Notes under the pieces: generated by a model
What the model was told of the DNA's origin: nothing
What the model saw: the letters and a program-made list of their open reading frames with translations, nothing else
Database searches by the model: none
Shown here: positions 44,985 to 53,701 of the stretch, one piece after another
Layout: the number at the start of each line of letters is the position of its first letter
Position numbering within the stretch: position 1 is the stretch's first letter
Translations under genes and position numbers: made by a program
NCBI RefSeq assembly: GCF_021389935.1
Contig: NZ_CP089979.1
Span: 6,348,501 to 6,412,500, forward strand
Reading direction: 5' to 3'
Source: Fulvivirga ligni
GTDB lineage: Bacteria > Bacteroidota > Bacteroidia > Cytophagales > Cyclobacteriaceae
DNA length: 64,000 nucleotides

Positions 44985-47900
44985 ATGCCACTACTCCATA
45001 AAACCTTCTCGTCTAAAACTTCATTGACACTTAAAGGAGTGCTCATACAATCAATTATGATTGCCTTCACTTTAATTATAGCACCTTATCACATCCATGC
45101 ACAGACCCCAGGATTGATCATAGATCCGGCGGTGGGCGGCGCTCCTGTGCTAGATCCGAATGGCGATGGTTATGTCTCCTCAGACAATTCCGGTTTTGTG
45201 AGCAATGACAATGCTGAGAGCGAAATTCCATATCAAACCATTACTGTGCCTGAAATAGAACCTATCAGCGACGTAGCCTCTGGTCCTGCCTGCGGATTTA
45301 CAGATTTTGCCGATGACGCCACACGCTACGTGGCTGCGTCATATCTTGATGCCTCTAACAACTGGCTTTTCCGCTTCAGGTTAGGAGGATATGCTCCTAA
45401 TTCAAAGGGATATAGCGTTTTAATAGATACAGACAACTTATTCGGAAGTGGCAGTGACCCCAACCACGTGAGTGGCAACCCAGGCTTTGAAATTGAAATA
45501 GAATTAGTCACTAATTTTGGTGTAAGGCTCTATGATGTAGATGGCACCACATCGCCTACTTTAATGACCACATTGGCTTATGATGACTATGCTCAAAAGT
45601 CCATTGCTCAATCTACATCATGTTCCGATCCAGACTATTTCTATGATTTTTACATACCATTTTCCACCATTACCACCTTTTTCCCATCCATAACCACCTC
45701 CACCCCTATGCGCCTGGTAGCCAATACTGTAATTAATACACAAAGTGCTATCGGAGGCGGCATTTCCGACATTGGAGGTATAGATGACGATGCCTATGGT
45801 CATAATATTGATAAAATATGGGGCATTGTTATAGATAATCAAGTGGCTACTGCACCTGACGATATTAATTCAGGCTTTCCTCCCAGCCGCAGTGTGGCCC
45901 CTGCCATTACCAGCCCGGTATCAATTGGAGCCACTAGTGTTTCTGGAACATCAAGCGAAGCTGACGGCACCGTTATTGAACTTTTTGTAAATGGCATTTC
46001 AGTAGGTACCACTACTGTCACAGGCGGTAGCTGGACATTGTCTGGTTTAAGTGCATTAGCTGAAAATGACGCCCTTACCGCCACTGCTACTGCAAGTGGT
46101 GAATCTGTATCTTTAAGTTCGGAAGAAGTGAGTGTAGGCGCCTCTTGTAGCACCGCCCCCACCATTACCTGTGGCGGTAGAAAAGGTATAGAAATAAGTA
46201 CTGTCAGTACACTGCCAGTGGGCACAGTATTGAGGTCATACAACCCAAATGATGCCTCTTTCCCCAGCCCGGTTGGCACTTTCACTGTTACCACACCTGG
46301 AACATCTTTTGTCATCGCTTGTAATGGATCCAATTCAGGCTGTAATTCAGGTACCAACTGTCAACCCAACGGTAGTTACTGGGCTACGGTGCAGGAGCCA
46401 GGAAACTGTGAATCAGTACCTTCAGCTTCATTTTGCACGGGTGGTGGTAGCTCTGCCAGCACCACACCTACCGTAAGCACGGCATCGGTAACCACATCTA
46501 CCACTTCCATTAGCGGAACCTCCACCAGTGGGTTCAAAATATTTCTTTTTATTGATGGTGATTACACTAGTACTACCACTGCCGATGGCTCCGGAGCCTG
46601 GAGCTTTTCTGGCTTAAGCTTGAGTTTAGGTCAAGTATTGCAAGTGAAAGCACTACAATCTGGCCAGTGTTTATCAGCAGCCGTTAGCAGAACCGTAACA
46701 GAGCAATCTACAGCACCTATCATTAACGGCCCGCTGTCCAATGGCGCTACCAGCGTATCAGGAACAAGTACGGAGGCTGCTGGAACTGTAATCGACGTGT
46801 TAGTAGGCGGAGTTTCCGTAGGCACCACCACTGTAGATGCCAATGGCAATTGGTCGCTTACAGGCCTTTCTTTGAGTACAGGTCAGGTAGTAACTGCCAC
46901 AGCCACAGCGGCTGGTGAATTAGTTAGTGCGGCATCATCTGCTTTCACGGTTCTGGAGGTAAGCGCTACACCTTCCATCTCGGGCAGTTACACTGAAGGA
47001 GGAACATCAGTATCTGGAACCTCTCCCTCTGCAGATGGTACCGACATAGATGTTTACATTGACGGCGGCGAACTAGGATCCACAACCACCTCATCTGGAA
47101 GCTGGACCGTGGGTGGTCTAAGTTCTGCTAATAATGATTTATATGCCGGAGGTGTTATCACTGCAACCGCTACCGAAGCTGGCAAGGCAGAAAGCCCGGA
47201 ATCTGCCGGCACAACCGTGTCTTGCAACGCACCATTAACGGATCGCACAGTAAATGTGCTAAGTACAGAAGTATGCGAAAATACCACTGCACAGGTAGAA
47301 ATTTCCAACTCCGAGGCGGGAGTAATTTATACTTTACGAGACAATGCCAACACCGTAGATAGAAGTACAGCCCTGCTCGGCACTGGCGGTGCTATTATTT
47401 TTGACTCTTTTGAACTCTCTTCCACAGAAACATTACAAATAGAAGCACTGAAAATACCTGACCTCTCCTGCATTGGCCTTAACAGTAATTCTGCCGCCAT
47501 TACGGTATACAGTAACCCTGCTGATGACAGGACCGTTACCAGCACAGCTTCCACCATAGATTCGGGTGAATCTACTGACATTGAAGTGGCAAACTCAGAG
47601 GTGGGCGTAGATTATCTATTGAGAGATGATGCCGACGACTCGGCGATAGGAAGCTCCGTAGCTGGTACGGGTGGCACCATTCTTCTTCCTACTGGCACCA
47701 TCGGATCCACGACCACATTTAATGTGCTGGCCACCAAAACATCTCCCATCACTTGCACCATTGAACAGCTCAACACAGCCACCGTGACCGTAAACCCGGT
47801 GCTACCTGTAGAATTGATTAACTTCACTGCTGAAGAAGATGACAATAGCCATGCTATTCACTTAACCTGGGCCACTGCATCTGAACTTAATAATGACTAT

Positions 47901-48344
47901 TTTGTAATAGAGAGAAGTTCAGACGCAGCATCTTTTGATGCTATAGGACAAGTGCAAGGAGCTGGAGACAGCCAGGAAAGATTGGATTATAATTTTACCG
48001 ATACTAAACCAACCACTAACCTAAGTTATTACAGACTTAAACAAGTGGATTTTGATGGAAGCCATCATTATTCATCCATTATATCAATCACCAGCGATGG
48101 CAATTATCAAATTCTGGTAAACCCGAACCCATTTGAAACTTTTACTACTATAAAAGTTAATGGGCTACGAAAGGATCAACAGATCTCTGTAGTCATAACA
48201 GATCAATCAGGAAAACCAATAAAGCGAATAACAGGAGGATCTGAAGTGAAACTGTATAGAGATAACCTACCATCAGGCCTATACATATACCAGGTATACA
48301 TAGGCAAGCAATCTTTAAAAACAGGTAAGATCATTATCAAATAA
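44985..48344 (+). CDS. Large surface protein with Ig-like repeats and T9SS type A sorting domain
   Basis: The 1119-residue protein has a signal peptide ending near residue 40 (HIHAQ). Next come a beta-rich domain (about 45-300, DPNGDGYVSSDNSGFVSNDNA), four bacterial Ig-like repeats (about 305-385, 480-570, 570-665, 665-750; each with SVSGTS.eAdGT.idv.v.G and GSWT.sGLs), two further Ser/Thr-rich modules (about 755-925), an Fn3-like unit (VELINFTAEEDDNSHAIHLTW) and a C-terminal sorting domain (ILVNPNPFETFTTIKVNG). The repeats suggest a stalk lifting the N-terminal domain from the cell. The N-terminal fold is unassigned. Repeats are similar at DNA level, so copy number may vary. Confidence 0.83.
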   Translation: MPLLHKTFSSKTSLTLKGVLIQSIMIAFTLIIAPYHIHAQTPGLIIDPAVGGAPVLDPNGDGYVSSDNSGFVSNDNAESEIPYQTITVPEIEPISDVASGPACGFTDFADDATRYVAASYLDASNNWLFRFRLGGYAPNSKGYSVLIDTDNLFGSGSDPNHVSGNPGFEIEIELVTNFGVRLYDVDGTTSPTLMTTLAYDDYAQKSIAQSTSCSDPDYFYDFYIPFSTITTFFPSITTSTPMRLVANTVINTQSAIGGGISDIGGIDDDAYGHNIDKIWGIVIDNQVATAPDDINSGFPPSRSVAPAITSPVSIGATSVSGTSSEADGTVIELFVNGISVGTTTVTGGSWTLSGLSALAENDALTATATASGESVSLSSEEVSVGASCSTAPTITCGGRKGIEISTVSTLPVGTVLRSYNPNDASFPSPVGTFTVTTPGTSFVIACNGSNSGCNSGTNCQPNGSYWATVQEPGNCESVPSASFCTGGGSSASTTPTVSTASVTTSTTSISGTSTSGFKIFLFIDGDYTSTTTADGSGAWSFSGLSLSLGQVLQVKALQSGQCLSAAVSRTVTEQSTAPIINGPLSNGATSVSGTSTEAAGTVIDVLVGGVSVGTTTVDANGNWSLTGLSLSTGQVVTATATAAGELVSAASSAFTVLEVSATPSISGSYTEGGTSVSGTSPSADGTDIDVYIDGGELGSTTTSSGSWTVGGLSSANNDLYAGGVITATATEAGKAESPESAGTTVSCNAPLTDRTVNVLSTEVCENTTAQVEISNSEAGVIYTLRDNANTVDRSTALLGTGGAIIFDSFELSSTETLQIEALKIPDLSCIGLNSNSAAITVYSNPADDRTVTSTASTIDSGESTDIEVANSEVGVDYLLRDDADDSAIGSSVAGTGGTILLPTGTIGSTTTFNVLATKTSPITCTIEQLNTATVTVNPVLPVELINFTAEEDDNSHAIHLTWATASELNNDYFVIERSSDAASFDAIGQVQGAGDSQERLDYNFTDTKPTTNLSYYRLKQVDFDGSHHYSSIISITSDGNYQILVNPNPFETFTTIKVNGLRKDQQISVVITDQSGKPIKRITGGSEVKLYRDNLPSGLYIYQVYIGKQSLKTGKIIIK

Positions 48345-48497: not shown

Positions 48498-48528
48498 TTT
48501 GAATAAATAAACCCTTTTATTAACTTTG
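48498..48528 (+). promoter_or_regulatory. Bacteroidota promoter of tRNA-like RNA copy 1, with leader hairpin
   Basis: TTTG (48498-48501), a 19-bp spacer and TAACTTTG (48521-48528) match the TTTG / TAnnTTTG consensus exactly. A 7-bp hairpin ATCAATT-AACG-AATTGAT follows at 48533-48550, just before the RNA body at 48557. Confidence 0.75.
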
Positions 48529-48556
48529 AAATATCAATTAACGAATTGATCTACAC

Positions 48557-48688
48557 TGTAGGGTGATGAAACAGGCAGACATGCCCTCCGGTCTCGGGGG
48601 TGGAGGTCACGGGATAAATTCTTTAGAGTATCCAATAACACTAAAAAGTACTAACCGCTCCGTGGAGGTTCGAATCCTCCCTCTACAG
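48557..48688 (+). tRNA. tRNA-like class II RNA gene, copy 1 (Leu-type D arm, anticodon not assignable)
   Basis: The 132 bases fold as a cloverleaf. The acceptor stem TGTAGGG pairs with CTCTACA, discriminator G. The D arm is ATG-AAACAGGCAGA-CAT, as in tRNA-Leu. An anticodon-like arm CCCTC-CGGTCTC-GGGGG has 7 loop bases but G instead of the invariant U33. A long variable arm (48602-48661) closes with GGAG/CTCC and CGG/CCG, with an inner GATA/TATC stem. The T arm is GGAGG-TTCGAAT-CCTCC. CCA is not encoded. It may be an RNA with a non-decoding role, a rare tRNA class or a decayed tRNA-Leu. Its own promoter and terminator, plus covariation with copy 2, argue for a functional RNA. Confidence 0.6.
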
Positions 48689-48695
48689 CAACAAG

Positions 48696-48726
48696 AAAGG
48701 CAGCTCAAATGGGCTGCCTTTTTTTA
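48696..48726 (+). terminator. Terminator of tRNA-like copy 1
   Basis: A 9-bp perfect stem AAAGGCAGC / GCTGCCTTT with an 8-nt loop runs into a T tract, beginning 8 bp after the RNA body. Confidence 0.8.
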
Positions 48727-48929
48727 TGTTATCAATTTCAAGGAAAGGTATTCATTCCATCAAAACACATCCACTAGATTCATACAAACCACATTCCTAC
48801 TTTAATCCTATGCTTCATTGTAAATTTCACAATAAATTCGCCGAAGATATAAGCGATTTTAAAATTCAATCAACAATAAAGAGTTAATATTAAAAATATC
48901 ACATAAATCAAGCTAATTACTTGCAAAAA

Positions 48930-48960
48930 TTTGAATAAATAAACCCTTTTATTAACTTTG
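48930..48960 (+). promoter_or_regulatory. Bacteroidota promoter of tRNA-like RNA copy 2, with leader hairpin
   Basis: TTTG (48930-48933), 19-bp spacer and TAACTTTG (48953-48960) are identical to copy 1. The ATCAATT-AACG-AATTGAT leader hairpin follows at 48965-48982. Confidence 0.75.
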
Positions 48961-48988
48961 AAATATCAATTAACGAATTGATCTACAC

Positions 48989-49120
48989 TGTAGGGTGATG
49001 AAACAGGCAGACATGCCCTCCGGTCTCGGGGGTGGAGGTCACGGGATAAATTCTTTAGAGTATCCAATAACACTAAAAAGCGCTAACCGCTCCGTGAAGG
49101 TTCGAATCCTTCTCCTACAG
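48989..49120 (+). tRNA. tRNA-like class II RNA gene, copy 2
   Basis: The fold is the same as copy 1. The T arm is GAAGG-TTCGAAT-CCTTC (G-C replaced by A-T on both sides) and the acceptor is TGTAGGG with TCCTACA (one G-U becomes G-C, one G-C becomes G-U). In the variable arm TA becomes CG, turning palindrome AGTACT into AGCGCT. The D arm and anticodon-like arm are unchanged, again without U33. Preserved pairing despite substitutions indicates selection on the folded RNA. Confidence 0.6.
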
Positions 49121-49160
49121 CTAATAGTAAAAATTCCTTGTATTGCACAGAATGTTTGAC

Positions 49161-49194
49161 AAACGACCTGCCCTCGGGCAGGTTGTTTTGTTTT
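49161..49194 (+). terminator. Terminator of tRNA-like copy 2
   Basis: AAACGACCTGCC pairs with GGCAGGTTGTTT (12 bp, one G-T) around CTCG, then TGTTTT. It ends 10 bp from the stop of the convergent SnoaL-like gene and may serve both strands. Confidence 0.75.
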
Positions 49195-50177: not shown

Positions 50178-51002
50178 TTAATGTCCTAATAATAAATATT
50201 CCTTCAAAGTATCCGTTTTAGGATTTTCAAAAACCGAATTGGGTGTACCCTGCTCTATCACCTCTCCAAAATACATAAACACCACATAATCAGCTAACCG
50301 TTTAGCTTGCCTTAATATATGAGTTACTAAAATGATTGAGAACTCCTCGCTCAGCTCTTTAAACTGTTCCTCAATCCTTCTGCTGGAAATAGGATCCAGG
50401 GCAGATGTAGGCTCATCTGCAAGAATAACTCTTGGCTCTACCGCCAAACCTCTGGCCAAACACAAACGCTGCTGCTGCCCTATAGAAAGTCGACCTGCCG
50501 AGCTCTTGAGCCGATCCTTTACCTCTTCCCACAAGCTCACTTTCTTCAAATAAAACTCCACTCTATCTTCTAACTCGGACTTACCATTAATACCTTTTAA
50601 CTTTAGGGCGTATTTAATATTCTCACTAATTGTACCAGGCAGTGGCTGTGGCTTTTGAGATAATAATCCCATTTTTTGACGCAGATCATAAACATCAACA
50701 TTTTTATCAAAGATATTCTTACCCTCTAATAGAATCTGTCCTCGCTGGCTCACATCAGGGTAAAGGTCAGACAAACGGTTGAAGGTTTTTAGTAAAGTAG
50801 TCTTTCCACAACCAGAAGGCCCCAGCAGAACAGCTATACCTTTATCTTCTATATCAAGATTAATGCTTTTTAAAGTTTGTTGCGATCCATGCCAAAGATT
50901 TAAGTCTTTTACTCTAATTAGTGTCTTGTGTCTATGTGCGGCAGTTGCATGCAAATCCAACTCTGGAGCAGTGGCTATATGGTTATTTATAGTTTGTGTC
51001 AT
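50178..51002 (-). CDS. pstB: Phosphate ABC transporter ATP-binding protein
   Basis: The 274-residue protein has an ABC ATPase core: Walker A GPSGCGKTT (about 59-67), PstB-type LSQKPQPLPGTISENI Q-loop, signature LSIGQQQR, Walker B VILADEPTSALDP and the switch His in LVTHILRQAKR. It drives high-affinity phosphate uptake with PstA/PstC. The start overlaps the pstA stop by one base. No phoU follows, unlike many pst operons. Confidence 0.92.
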   Translation of the reverse strand: MTQTINNHIATAPELDLHATAAHRHKTLIRVKDLNLWHGSQQTLKSINLDIEDKGIAVLLGPSGCGKTTLLKTFNRLSDLYPDVSQRGQILLEGKNIFDKNVDVYDLRQKMGLLSQKPQPLPGTISENIKYALKLKGINGKSELEDRVEFYLKKVSLWEEVKDRLKSSAGRLSIGQQQRLCLARGLAVEPRVILADEPTSALDPISSRRIEEQFKELSEEFSIILVTHILRQAKRLADYVVFMYFGEVIEQGTPNSVFENPKTDTLKEYLLLGH

Positions 51003-51853
51003 TATATAATATTCTTTGATAGTTTTCTAGTAATTAATCGGGATGAGAGGCTTATTATCAAAATTATGATGGTAAGCACTACCGCTGCGGCGTAGGCTCT
51101 CGCTTTCACCTCAGGTATGGGTGAGCTAAGCTGAAAGAAAATGGCCAATGGTAGTGTAGCAGCAGGTTCTGAAAGACTTTCAGGAATGTAATCAGTATAG
51201 CCAGCTGTAAATAAAACTGATGCCGTATCACCTATTCCCTTTCCGAGCGCCAGCAAAAAGGCTGTAGCCACTCCTGGAAGAGACTGTCTCAACAGAAATT
51301 TATACCCTATTTCACCTTTAAAAAAGCCCAGAGAAATAGCAGATTCAAATAATGAATGTGAGACCTGCTGCAAGCTTTCATCCATTGTTCTGATCATAAC
51401 AGGGCAAATCAAAAATGCCACTGTGATGATAGCTGCCAACAATGAACTTGACCAACCGAACATAAGCATTAGATTAAACCCAAAAGCACCGTAAACTATA
51501 GGTGGAATGCCCCATAGCACATCAAGACTTAGCCTGATTCTTCTCTGCCATGCAGGGAATGAAAATAGATAAGTATGCATGAATAATGCTACCGGAACAC
51601 TGAGAACGATAGCGATTAATGAGGCACCAAAAGCGAGATAGATAGAACCAATGATAGCATTTAGAATACCACCTTCTTTCCCAAAGTAGTAACCTCCTTT
51701 GGGGACCTGGCTGATAATATCCCAGGTTAGAGCCGGCAAGCCTTTCATGAAAATACCTACTAATATGCTAGCAAGAACCACTACAACGAGAAAGGTAAAA
51801 AAAGCCAACACCAGCCTTGCCAGCTTTTCTTCCGTGTATTTATTCAATTTCAT
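51002..51853 (-). CDS. pstA: Phosphate ABC transporter permease PstA
   Basis: The 283-residue permease has about six membrane helices and the ABC permease EAA-type loop (LFESAISLGFFKGEIGYKFLLRQSLPGVATAFLLALGKGIGDTASVLFTAGYTDYIPESL). It pairs with PstC in the inner membrane. The gene lies 5 bp after pstC and overlaps pstB by one base. Confidence 0.92.
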   Translation of the reverse strand: MKLNKYTEEKLARLVLAFFTFLVVVVLASILVGIFMKGLPALTWDIISQVPKGGYYFGKEGGILNAIIGSIYLAFGASLIAIVLSVPVALFMHTYLFSFPAWQRRIRLSLDVLWGIPPIVYGAFGFNLMLMFGWSSSLLAAIITVAFLICPVMIRTMDESLQQVSHSLFESAISLGFFKGEIGYKFLLRQSLPGVATAFLLALGKGIGDTASVLFTAGYTDYIPESLSEPAATLPLAIFFQLSSPIPEVKARAYAAAVVLTIIILIISLSSRLITRKLSKNII

Positions 51854-51858
51854 AATTA

Positions 51859-52749
51859 TTATAATTTAGTGTAATAATGATTGACCAGTGTTCTTGCTAA
51901 TAGATTGAATACCAGCACTATCATAAAAAGAATTAATGCAGACAGCATAAGTGCGGCATCATATCGAGGTATAGTCATCATCTCCCCATAATTGTTGGCC
52001 AATAAGGCGGGTAAAGGGTAGCCAGCAGAAAACAGCCCCTCAGGAACCTTCACCATATTGCCCACCACCATGAGTACAGCTATGGTTTCTCCAAATGTTT
52101 TACTAACACCCAGAGTAAATGCTGCTATAATTCCTGGCCTGAGCTTTTTTAAAAGAACATCTTTTATCACCTGCCAATAACTGGCACCCAAAGCCAGGGC
52201 CGACTCCTTGAGGTCCGTACTTACTGACTCGAAAAGCTCCATAAGCATATTTAAAATATAGGGTGATACAGAGAAAGAAACTACCAGACCTGCGGCCAGG
52301 ATAGAATACCCTGTGGTATTAGTAGCTCCATAAGCTACGGCCAGGCTGGCTACCATAGGCACAATGGTTATCACACCCCACAAACCGAAGATAACAGAAG
52401 GAATACCTGCAAGAATATCAATAATGGAACGTAATGATCTTGACAACCAAGCAGGAGCAAATTGAGTTATAAAAATAGCGGCTGATAGACAGACCGGTAC
52501 CATGAATAATAAACCTATAAAGGATACGATGATGGAACTACAAATAAATGGCCATAGGCCAAACTTCCCTTGAACGGGTGACCATTCTGTACTCAAAAGG
52601 TTAGTGAATAATTCATTAGGCTGCAACAAAGGCCATGATTTATATACCAACGATAACCCAATAGCAATAGGCAGAATAACTATTAACCCGAGTGCTATTC
52701 TCATCCAAACACTTCTTAAGTGCTCTTGATAAAGTCGTGTAGCGATCAT
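51859..52749 (-). CDS. pstC: Phosphate ABC transporter permease PstC
   Basis: The 296-residue permease has six membrane helices and the EAA loop (LKESALALGASYWQVIKDVLLKKLRPGIIAAFTLGVSKTFGETIAVLMVVGN). IDILAGIPSVIFGLWG is a PstC hallmark. It begins one base after the pstS stop, so the operon reads pstS-pstC-pstA-pstB. Confidence 0.92.
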   Translation of the reverse strand: MIATRLYQEHLRSVWMRIALGLIVILPIAIGLSLVYKSWPLLQPNELFTNLLSTEWSPVQGKFGLWPFICSSIIVSFIGLLFMVPVCLSAAIFITQFAPAWLSRSLRSIIDILAGIPSVIFGLWGVITIVPMVASLAVAYGATNTTGYSILAAGLVVSFSVSPYILNMLMELFESVSTDLKESALALGASYWQVIKDVLLKKLRPGIIAAFTLGVSKTFGETIAVLMVVGNMVKVPEGLFSAGYPLPALLANNYGEMMTIPRYDAALMLSALILFMIVLVFNLLARTLVNHYYTKL

Positions 52750-52750
52750 A

Positions 52751-53701
52751 TTATAAACTATTTTTTTGAGTAGTCAACACTTCATCACTCAACAGGATGT
52801 AGCCATTTTCCTGAACAAAATTTTGACCTGAATCCAGTATCCACTGAAGAAATGTTACCATCAATGGATCAGTCGGCTTTTCCTTTGAAATCAGGTACAG
52901 CTCCCGAGCGGGTGGAGAAGGGTATCTCCCATCTGCTATAGCAGCAGTAATGGAATGGATATCATGATAAAAATCTTCCTCAACATCTATTTTACCATTA
53001 CCATTGATATCAATAGGAAGTACCTCTAGACCTGGATACTTCTTGCCACTAGTTAAGTCATACGCATAGATCACATTGTTATAGCCTATGGCCAAAGGAT
53101 CTTTCTTCACGGCTTCAGCCAAACCAGGATCACCATATACTGCCACCCCCTTAATAGCCTCCTGACTATCAGCCCCCAGATACTTTGCCCATGTATCAGC
53201 GGCTCCAGCAGCATCAGATCTGGTGAATACACTCACTTTATTGGATGAATTTTTCCATGTTTCATTACCCTCTTTTAAAAAGTAATTGATCAATTCACCC
53301 CTGGTAATTCCTTCTTTCTTTAACTGGCTCAATATTGGATTTTTATCACTGATAGTAGGCACTACCGCATCTTTGGCAACAGAAACCCACCACACTCCCT
53401 TATCTCTTTCTTCCGGTTTTATCTCTCTGGAAAACATTCCTAAATCTGTAGCCCCGGCTAATACATCAGCCATACCCTTTCCGGCACCACCTCCTGATAT
53501 GTTAATTTTTACCTTGGGATGTTCTTTTCTGAACTCCTCAGCCCAAACATTCATGAGTGGATACAGAGCAAAAGCGCCCGAAACTGAGATAGAGCCTTGG
53601 ATTTCATCAGAAGAACTTTGCTGCTGATCATTGGCAGTACGCTCACATGCCGTGGTTAAAGCCGTAACTACACAAGCTAAAATTAAAAATGAATTTCTCA
53701 T
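52751..53701 (-). CDS. pstS: Phosphate-binding lipoprotein PstS
   Basis: The 316-residue protein has a type II signal peptide (TTAC, Cys19) and PstS features: ISVSGAFALYPLMNVWAEEF, VKINISGGGAGKGMADVLAGATDLGMFSREI and FTRSDAAGAADTWAKYLG, the loops that hold phosphate. Lipid anchoring keeps it in the periplasm on the inner membrane. A C-terminal helix closes the second lobe. It is first in the pst operon and 47 bp downstream of a porin gene. Confidence 0.9.
   Translation of the reverse strand: MRNSFLILACVVTALTTACERTANDQQQSSSDEIQGSISVSGAFALYPLMNVWAEEFRKEHPKVKINISGGGAGKGMADVLAGATDLGMFSREIKPEERDKGVWWVSVAKDAVVPTISDKNPILSQLKKEGITRGELINYFLKEGNETWKNSSNKVSVFTRSDAAGAADTWAKYLGADSQEAIKGVAVYGDPGLAEAVKKDPLAIGYNNVIYAYDLTSGKKYPGLEVLPIDINGNGKIDVEEDFYHDIHSITAAIADGRYPSPPARELYLISKEKPTDPLMVTFLQWILDSGQNFVQENGYILLSDEVLTTQKNSL

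What the first reader, a model, noticed from the sequence alone, without database searches (positions are those of the whole stretch)
48557..49120. Two tRNA-like class II RNAs with no U33 and a giant variable arm
Two 132-base RNAs fold as cloverleafs with a tRNA-Leu-type D arm, normal T loop and acceptor stem. The anticodon-like loop (CGGTCTC) has G at position 33, and the variable arm spans about 60 nt instead of 10-20. Each has an exact Bacteroidota promoter and its own terminator, so they look expressed and may not decode. Possible roles include amino-acid delivery outside translation, regulation or a trapped tRNA-binding protein.
Basis: partly seen in the sequence, partly recalled or inferred. 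Interest (0 to 1): 0.85.

Follow-up and report, generated by a model that had tools for sequence, protein, structure and literature searches.

The report
Non-decoding tRNA for making asparagine
A widespread, apparently undescribed family of tRNA-like RNAs in Bacteroidota and in phages looks like a carrier on which cells turn aspartate into asparagine, rather than a tRNA that reads the genetic code.

Summary
The two RNAs are real: 133 nt each (48557-48689 and 48989-49121), with Bacteroidota-type promoters and terminators. They belong to an RNA family with no Rfam match. It is found in 122 of 147 genomes of this bacterial family, in other orders, in one other class, and on 54 viral contigs. A tRNA cloverleaf is supported by covariation.

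Conserved in bacterial copies: U1-A72, G2-C71, G73, C74 (125 of 125), C38 (123 of 123), anticodon GUC (120 of 123). Not conserved: U33. Position 37 is a pyrimidine in 120 of 123.

This is the published aspartate identity set, less G10 and G1-C72, plus U1-A72, the mark by which GatCAB recognises tRNA-Asn. In a 60-genome panel GatB is in 26 of 26 RNA-bearing genomes. In same-class genomes with GlnRS, RNA and GatB coincide exactly (19 both, 24 neither). Genomes lacking both usually have AsnA or E. coli-type AsnB. A regulator closest to E. coli AsnC lies divergently upstream in 105 of 189 testable loci.

Best reading: AspRS charges the RNA, GatCAB amidates it to Asn-RNA, and the asparagine is used outside decoding. 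Charging, amidation and release are inferred. Host tRNA-Asn also has U1-A72, and most RNA-bearing genomes keep another AsnB-like protein.

The parts
48498..48528 (+). Promoter of copy 1: TTTG (48498-48501), 19 nt, TAACTTTG (48521-48528)
   Evidence: Sequence. Consensus recalled. TAnnTTTG lies 5-45 nt upstream of 62 of 164 bacterial copies, 4.8 expected from mononucleotide shuffles.
48533..48550 (+). Leader inverted repeat ATCAATT-AACG-AATTGAT, copy 1
   Evidence: arms change together in L007-L009.
48557..48689 (+). tRNA-like RNA copy 1, position 1 to C74
   Evidence: cloverleaf by covariation.
48589..48595 (+). Anticodon loop CGGTCTC, copy 1: G33 48590, G34 U35 C36 48591-48593, U37 48594, C38 48595
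   Evidence: conservation.
48602..48661 (+). Giant variable arm, copy 1: stem GGAG/CTCC, stem CGG/CCG, internal loop GATAAA/CTAA, variable hairpin 48619-48650
48693..48724 (+). Terminator of copy 1
48930..48960 (+). Promoter of copy 2: TTTG (48930-48933), 19 nt, TAACTTTG (48953-48960)
48989..49121 (+). tRNA-like RNA copy 2, position 1 to C74
   Evidence: compensatory T-stem change against copy 1.
49161..49188 (+). Terminator of copy 2

Best explanation
The RNA is a dedicated, non-decoding carrier for tRNA-dependent asparagine synthesis. Aspartyl-tRNA synthetase charges it with Asp, reading G34 U35 C36, C38, G73 and G2-C71. GatCAB recognises its U1-A72 pair and amidates Asp-RNA to Asn-RNA. Loss of U33 in some lineages, loss of the purine at 37, and the giant variable arm keep Asn-RNA off Asp codons. 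The ester-bound Asn is released as free asparagine for AsnRS and metabolism. An AsnC-type regulator beside the RNA adjusts supply, as AsnC does for asnA in E. coli (recalled). Phages bring their own copy. Shown: family, structure, conserved identity elements, association with GatB, inverse association with AsnA / E. coli-type AsnB, linkage to the AsnC relative. Inferred: expression, charging, amidation, exclusion from decoding, release, AsnC control, benefit to phages.
For: (1) Identity elements: U1-A72, G2-C71, G73, C74 in 125 of 125 distinct bacterial copies, C38 in 123 of 123, GUC in 120 of 123, while stems and positions 33 and 37 vary. PMC9976931 (passages): G73, G34, U35, C36, C38 strong for Asp, G2-C71 minor; U1-A72 confers amidation of Asp-tRNA-Asn. 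Of 28 distinct own tRNAs only tRNA-Asn and tRNA-Gln begin with U1, and all 28 have U33 and a purine at 37. (2) GatB, 60-genome panel: RNA+ 26 of 26, RNA- 9 of 34 (Fisher 1e-9); same class with GlnRS: 19 both, 24 neither, 0 mixed. Family f1, 147 genomes: 120 both, 2 RNA only (assemblies 52% and 60% complete), 10 GatB only, 15 neither, p 3e-12; joint loss inside genera g15, g31, g36, g49. (3) AsnA or E. coli-type AsnB: 3 of 26 RNA+ against 22 of 25 RNA-/GatB- (p 3e-8). G616 (11 copies, GatB+, no synthetase over cut-off) against congeners G062 and G585 (no RNA, no GatB, E. coli-type AsnB pattern; G062 confirmed by NF006949). (4) AsnRS at E<=1e-30 in 60 of 60, 59 over cut-off. (5) A relative of E. 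coli AsnC (2cg4, E 1.6e-34) divergently upstream in 105 of 189 testable loci, including another class.
Against: Bacterial Asp identity also lists G10 and G1-C72; the RNA has A or U at 10 in 78 of 78 rows of A4 and never G1-C72, so charging could be weak. Host tRNA-Asn also has U1-A72, so the published route on tRNA-Asn is not excluded. Another TIGR01536 protein over cut-off is in 23 of 26 RNA+ genomes and could make Asn. Seven RNA+ panel genomes lack GlnRS, so there GatCAB has another use. AsnC orthologues persist in nine RNA- panel genomes, and none of the five f27 loci fetched has AsnC beside the RNA. Exceptions: 10 RNA-/GatB+ genomes in f1, three of them (G041, G050, G599) at least 98% complete; G206, G207, G240 with GatB and GlnRS but no RNA; G044 with RNA, GatB, AsnA and AsnB; CUC loops and a 77-nt AUC relative in genus g96; AUC in one copy each of L143 and L181. 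U33 is still present in 79 of 123 copies. No expression or charging data.
Confidence: 0.68

Rival explanations
1. Asn is made on ordinary tRNA-Asn by a non-discriminating AspRS and GatCAB, as in Bdellovibrio. The RNA is a helper or regulator of that route: it binds AspRS and GatCAB as a scaffold or competitor, under AsnC control, without itself carrying the Asn that is used.
For: Host tRNA-Asn has U1-A72. PMC4206432 (passages) proposes this route for bacteria with AsnRS, GlnRS and GatCAB but no Asn synthetase. All co-occurrence results fit.
Against: Does not explain why a CCA-type end, G73 and the Asp anticodon with C38 are kept.
Confidence: 0.12
2. The RNA is charged and used on ribosomes, as a specialised Asp tRNA or for deliberate misreading of Asp codons as Asn.
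For: GUC anticodon; U33 in 79 of 123 bacterial copies; carried by phages inside tRNA clusters.
Against: Position 37 is a pyrimidine in 120 of 123 and 33 is A, G or C in 44 of 123, against U33 and a purine at 37 in 28 of 28 own tRNAs.
Confidence: 0.06
3. Decoy for nucleases or toxins that attack the tRNA-Asp anticodon; phages carry it to protect translation.
For: tRNA-Asp-like loop; viral copies; several copies per genome.
Against: Does not predict U1-A72, the link to GatB, or the AsnC neighbour.
Confidence: 0.05
4. Asn-RNA forms, but its Asn is transferred to a lipid, peptide or cell-wall product rather than released.
For: Same identity and GatB evidence; dedicated non-decoding tRNAs for cell-wall synthesis are known in staphylococci (recalled).
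Against: No recurring transferase among bacterial neighbours; AsnA/AsnB are inversely distributed, which points to free Asn.
Confidence: 0.09

Closest known systems
tRNA-dependent asparagine synthesis on tRNA-Asn (non-discriminating AspRS + GatCAB; PMC4206432, abstract and passages seen)
   Same: Same proposed enzymes and chemistry, same U1-A72 mark, same genomic setting; Bacteroidetes are among the 18 genera listed there with AsnRS, GlnRS and GatCAB but no Asn synthetase.
   Different: There the acceptor is the decoding tRNA-Asn and AspRS must be non-discriminating. Here a separate RNA with the Asp anticodon could let an ordinary AspRS do the first step, and it seems unable to decode.
Bacterial tRNA-Asp (GUC)
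   Same: G34 U35 C36, C38, G73, G2-C71, encoded C74.
   Different: Class II body with giant variable arm; U1-A72 instead of G1-C72; no G10 in most copies; never A37.
Bacterial tRNA-Leu
   Same: D-arm pattern and class II layout; the ordinary tRNAs that score highest on the model include tRNA-Leu.
   Different: G73 instead of A73; Asp anticodon; members score about 80-134 bits against at most about 63 for tRNA-sized hits.
tRNA-Sec and allo-tRNAs (PMC7609411, passages seen)
   Same: Long variable arm and unusual anticodons; allo-tRNAs with GUC are reported.
   Different: 7-bp acceptor and 5-bp T stem instead of 8/5, 8/4 or 9/3; 3-bp D stem.
Pseudo-tRNA tRNA-Other of Bacillus cereus (PMC3399842, start of abstract in a search listing)
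   Same: A tRNA-like RNA said not to function in translation.
   Different: Reported for one strain beside a pathogenicity island; nothing on Asp identity or GatCAB in what I saw.

Membership tests
tRNA (Rfam RF00005, ARAGORN) | Recognised by tRNA models | tested here: not met
   No ARAGORN call in the window; no RF00005 hit at E<=1 for the window copies or for the RNAs in L126, L036, L201, L058.
tRNA (Rfam RF00005, ARAGORN) | Cloverleaf with U8, A14, G18 G19, T loop TTCRANN and tRNA 3' end | tested here: met
   N73-C74 end as in tRNA genes of hosts and phages.
tRNA (Rfam RF00005, ARAGORN) | Decoding features U33 and purine 37 | tested here: not met
   33 is not U in 44 of 123; 37 is a pyrimidine in 120 of 123; own tRNAs 28 of 28 have both.
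AspRS substrate | G73, G34, U35, C36, C38, G2-C71 | tested here: met
   125 of 125, 120 of 123, 123 of 123 and 125 of 125; set from PMC9976931.
AspRS substrate | G10 and G1-C72 | tested here: not met
   A or U at 10 in 78 of 78 rows of A4, G in some model-found clades; pair 1-72 is U-A in 125 of 125.
AspRS substrate | Aspartylation by the enzyme | not testable with these tools
   Needs purified enzyme.
GatCAB substrate | U1-A72, no U20a | tested here: met
   125 of 125 bacterial copies; D loop GGCAG in A4; rule from PMC9976931 and PMC4206432.
GatCAB substrate | Amidation of the charged RNA | not testable with these tools
   Needs purified enzymes.
tRNA-dependent Asn pathway | GatCAB present and Asn synthetases absent | tested here: inconclusive
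   GatB in 26 of 26 RNA+. AsnA or E. coli-type AsnB in 3 of 26, but another TIGR01536 protein over cut-off in 23 of 26.
tRNA-Sec / allo-tRNA | 8/5, 8/4 or 9/3 acceptor branch | tested here: not met
   7 + 5 pairs; base -1 varies (C 92, T 64, A 43, G 1 of 200) before a constant G73.

The most novel reading that the evidence does not exclude
A genome-encoded RNA whose only job is to be a covalent carrier in amino-acid biosynthesis: free asparagine is made on RNA in place of AsnA/AsnB across Cytophagales, Chitinophaga and Saprospiraceae relatives and other Bacteroidota, under an AsnC-type regulator, and phages import their own copy of this biosynthetic RNA.
Probability: 0.5. Interest if true: 0.95.

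Novelty: new variant of a known kind. Interest (0 to 1): 0.88.

Why it matters
If true, it explains why bacteria that already have AsnRS and GlnRS keep GatCAB, how Bacteroidota without classical asparagine synthetases obtain asparagine, and what a widespread unannotated RNA does. [quoted passage not shown] It makes a simple prediction: RNA + AspRS + GatCAB should cure an asparagine auxotroph. It also adds an unexpected metabolic RNA to phage genomes.

Tried and rejected
Single-sequence folding gave no signal. Dimerisation through palindromic apical loops looked attractive by eye but is at chance: 28 of 76 variable-hairpin types with a palindrome of 6 or more, 34.9 in shuffles. An origin as a recent mobile or phage element does not fit the AsnC neighbour kept in several clades. 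No phage protein recurs across unrelated phages; the largest cluster has 12 of 54 loci. INPHARED and PLSDB, blastn with one 110-nt copy, gave no match.

Bias and dropped rows. I therefore re-counted on copies from loci found by BLAST or the covariance model: identical sequences and hits under 100 nt were dropped (so the 77-nt L246 is out), and two L258 copies with an 11-nt loop region were left out of loop counts. The viral rows (n=43) are pattern-selected and include a few ordinary tRNAs and a truncated copy; I do not rest on them. In one search, 25 pattern hits could not be placed. No placed copy came from 15 of 119 named-genome loci: the 12 I looked at are chance matches or contig ends; L111, L141 and L151 were not looked at. 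The 15 unplaced viral loci were all hit by the model later, one (L077) as a fragment.

Calls made by judgement. RNA presence in the 60-genome panel is; G128 is counted as RNA+ on its odd 77-nt relative alone (without it 25 of 25). The panel was chosen by me, not drawn at random. One search printed 20 of its 25 genomes without the RNA; the other five were identified by comparison with the 147 handles. E. coli-type AsnB was called from the match pattern (profile 1 to about 385); NF006949 confirmed two. Genome tests used strict filters and are not corrected for phylogeny beyond within-genus contrasts.

Literature: ten text searches of a partial library returned no description of this RNA in the listings I saw.

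Full report
WHAT IS THERE. Two near-identical 133-nt RNAs lie in tandem. They are identical from the -33 box into the 3' part of the variable arm; the differences in the T stem and acceptor are compensatory. Each has TTTG-19 nt-TAACTTTG upstream and a terminator downstream. The own genome (6.52 Mb, one contig) has four copies; the one at 2176374-2176503 lies beside an AsnC-type gene at 2176640-2177113. The nearest named relatives are Fulvivirga (L117, L120), so the window is probably from Fulvivirga or a close relative (Cytophagales).

A FAMILY. BLAST matches at E<=0.01 occur in 150 of 194 relatives. A covariance model from 78 copies hits 122 of 147 genomes of the same family at E<=1e-18. In a phylum sample of 395 genomes it also scores high in other families of the order and class and in one other class (f67), while many families show only tRNA-sized hits. 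Members score about 80-134 bits, tRNA-sized hits at most about 63, and one 77-nt relative 68.8. Copy number reaches 11, in a tandem array of about 172 nt period (G616). Rfam 15 has no match. Named contigs with a placed copy (104 of 119 loci) include Cyclobacterium, Algoriphagus, Dyadobacter, Flammeovirga, Fulvivirga, Emticicia, Chitinophaga and Saprospiraceae.

VIRAL COPIES. A pattern with 18 fixed bases hits 54 IMG/VR contigs. The model scores above 80 bits in 53 of them and 55.7 in one contig-end fragment. In many the RNA sits among tRNA genes, in L048 and L058 next to a tmRNA; in 19 of 54 stretches ARAGORN finds no other tRNA.

STRUCTURE. Over 78 distinct copies 98.0% of cells pair and five of six helices have double changes; the weakest is the second variable-arm stem (86.8% paired). 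The anticodon stem varies little there, but in clades found by the model it changes in a compensatory way (CCCTC/GGGGG, CCCGC/GCGGG, CCTCC/GGTGG, CCGTC/GACGG, CCGCC/GGCGG) while the loop keeps GUC and C38. The variable arm has two stems, a fixed internal loop (RAUAAA/CUAA) and a hairpin of very variable length; a longer type carries a GGGUUGACCAC motif.

WHAT IS CONSERVED. Over 125 distinct bacterial copies found by BLAST or the model: U1-A72, G2-C71, G73, C74 in all; of 123 with a 7-nt loop, C38 in 123, GUC in 120, position 33 U 79, G 31, A 7, C 6, position 37 U 112, C 8, G 3. In the own genome (28 distinct tRNAs from the 30 best of 36 hits) tRNA-Asp has G1-C72 and loop CTGTCAC, only tRNA-Asn and tRNA-Gln begin with U1, and all 28 have U33 and a purine at 37; C38 also occurs in two tRNA-Arg and one tRNA-Val. 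These hosts and phages mostly encode N73-C74 without CA, so the RNA's GC end is the usual tRNA end. PMC9976931 (passages) lists G73, G34, U35, C36 and C38 as strong bacterial Asp determinants, G10 in its table, G1-C72 and G2-C71 as contributing, and U1-A72 as what lets Asp-tRNA-Asn be amidated. So the RNA joins the main AspRS marks to the GatCAB mark and drops decoding marks; G10 and G1-C72 are missing.

THE ASNC NEIGHBOUR. In 105 of 189 testable bacterial loci an Lrp/AsnC-family protein, 52-100% identical to the own one, begins 122-335 nt upstream on the other strand. Of 20 loci fetched from other clades 14 have it: f67 3 of 3, f23 6 of 6, f24 3 of 3, f11 1 of 1, f13 1 of 2, f27 0 of 5; other neighbours mostly differ between clades. 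Its nearest solved relative is E. coli AsnC (2cg4, E 1.6e-34; the next 3e-23). AsnC's role with asnA and Asn is recalled. Some loci without it are extra copies, like those of the window. The orthologue also persists in nine RNA-less genomes of the panel; in five inspected f1 examples the old neighbours remain without the RNA.

GATCAB AND ASN SYNTHETASES. In 60 chosen genomes: AsnRS at E<=1e-30 in 60 (59 over cut-off). GatB in 26 of 26 RNA+ and 9 of 34 RNA-. Six of those nine lack GlnRS and need GatCAB for Gln-tRNA; the other three (G206, G207, G240) lie outside the class. Seven RNA+ genomes lack GlnRS too. Within the class and with GlnRS, RNA and GatB agree in 43 of 43 genomes, 19 with both. 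In family f1: 120 both, 2 RNA only (assemblies 52% and 60% complete), 10 GatB only, 15 neither, Fisher 3e-12. Genera g15, g31, g36, g49 (and g9, with a poor assembly) hold both states with RNA and GatB lost together. AsnA or E. coli-type AsnB: 3 of 26 RNA+, 22 of 25 RNA-/GatB-. One genus shows the exchange: G616 has 11 RNA copies, GatB and no synthetase over cut-off; G062 and G585 have neither RNA nor GatB but an E. coli-type AsnB. G144 and G126 are further RNA+ genomes with no synthetase over cut-off. Caution: the other 23 RNA+ genomes hold a TIGR01536 protein over cut-off. The own one scores 508 bits on TIGR01536 but 343 on AsnB proper (cut-off 499) and matches an XrtA/PEP-CTERM amidotransferase model at 509 (cut-off 817).

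MECHANISM. AspRS -> Asp-RNA -> GatCAB -> Asn-RNA -> asparagine. Bdellovibrio AspRS + GatCAB does the same chemistry on tRNA-Asn, and a survey found 18 of 547 genera, some of them Bacteroidetes, with AsnRS, GlnRS and GatCAB but no Asn synthetase (PMC4206432, abstract and passages). A separate RNA with the Asp anticodon would spare the cell a non-discriminating AspRS. Loss of the purine at 37, of U33 in part of the family, and the giant arm would keep Asn-RNA from Asp codons. Release by ester hydrolysis and a scaffold role for the arm are guesses. Genus g96 (CUC loops; a 77-nt AUC relative; two of three genomes with AsnA) and the AUC copies in L143 and L181 may have drifted from this role.

LIMITS. 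No expression, charging or growth data; host tRNA-Asn could also be a GatCAB substrate; comparisons are not corrected for phylogeny beyond within-genus contrasts.

Noticed in passing
48533-48550 and 48965-48982: Leader inverted repeat with a constant AACG centre; in related copies (L007-L009) the arms change together, suggesting a 5' leader hairpin or an operator.
   Followed up: partly
L247, L327, L246 (genus g96): RNA with a CUC loop, and a 77-nt relative with a short variable loop and AUC: a lineage that may be losing or changing the role.
   Followed up: partly
L058, L048, L049, L044 and similar viral loci: Viral copies whose D-loop region holds an extra hairpin-like insertion.
   Followed up: no
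L143 3537-3655 and L181 5160-5275: A short-arm copy with AUC next to a long-arm copy with GUC; possible division of labour.
   Followed up: no
G531 C54 82131-84050: An AsnC relative directly beside AsnRS in a genome without the RNA.
   Followed up: no
L328 2195-4034: Eleven tandem copies of the RNA at about 172-nt spacing in G616, some with one base fewer in the anticodon stem.
   Followed up: no
window 44985-48344 and 50178-53701: A 1119-aa protein that looks secreted, and genes resembling a phosphate-type ABC transporter on the other strand (by eye).
   Followed up: no
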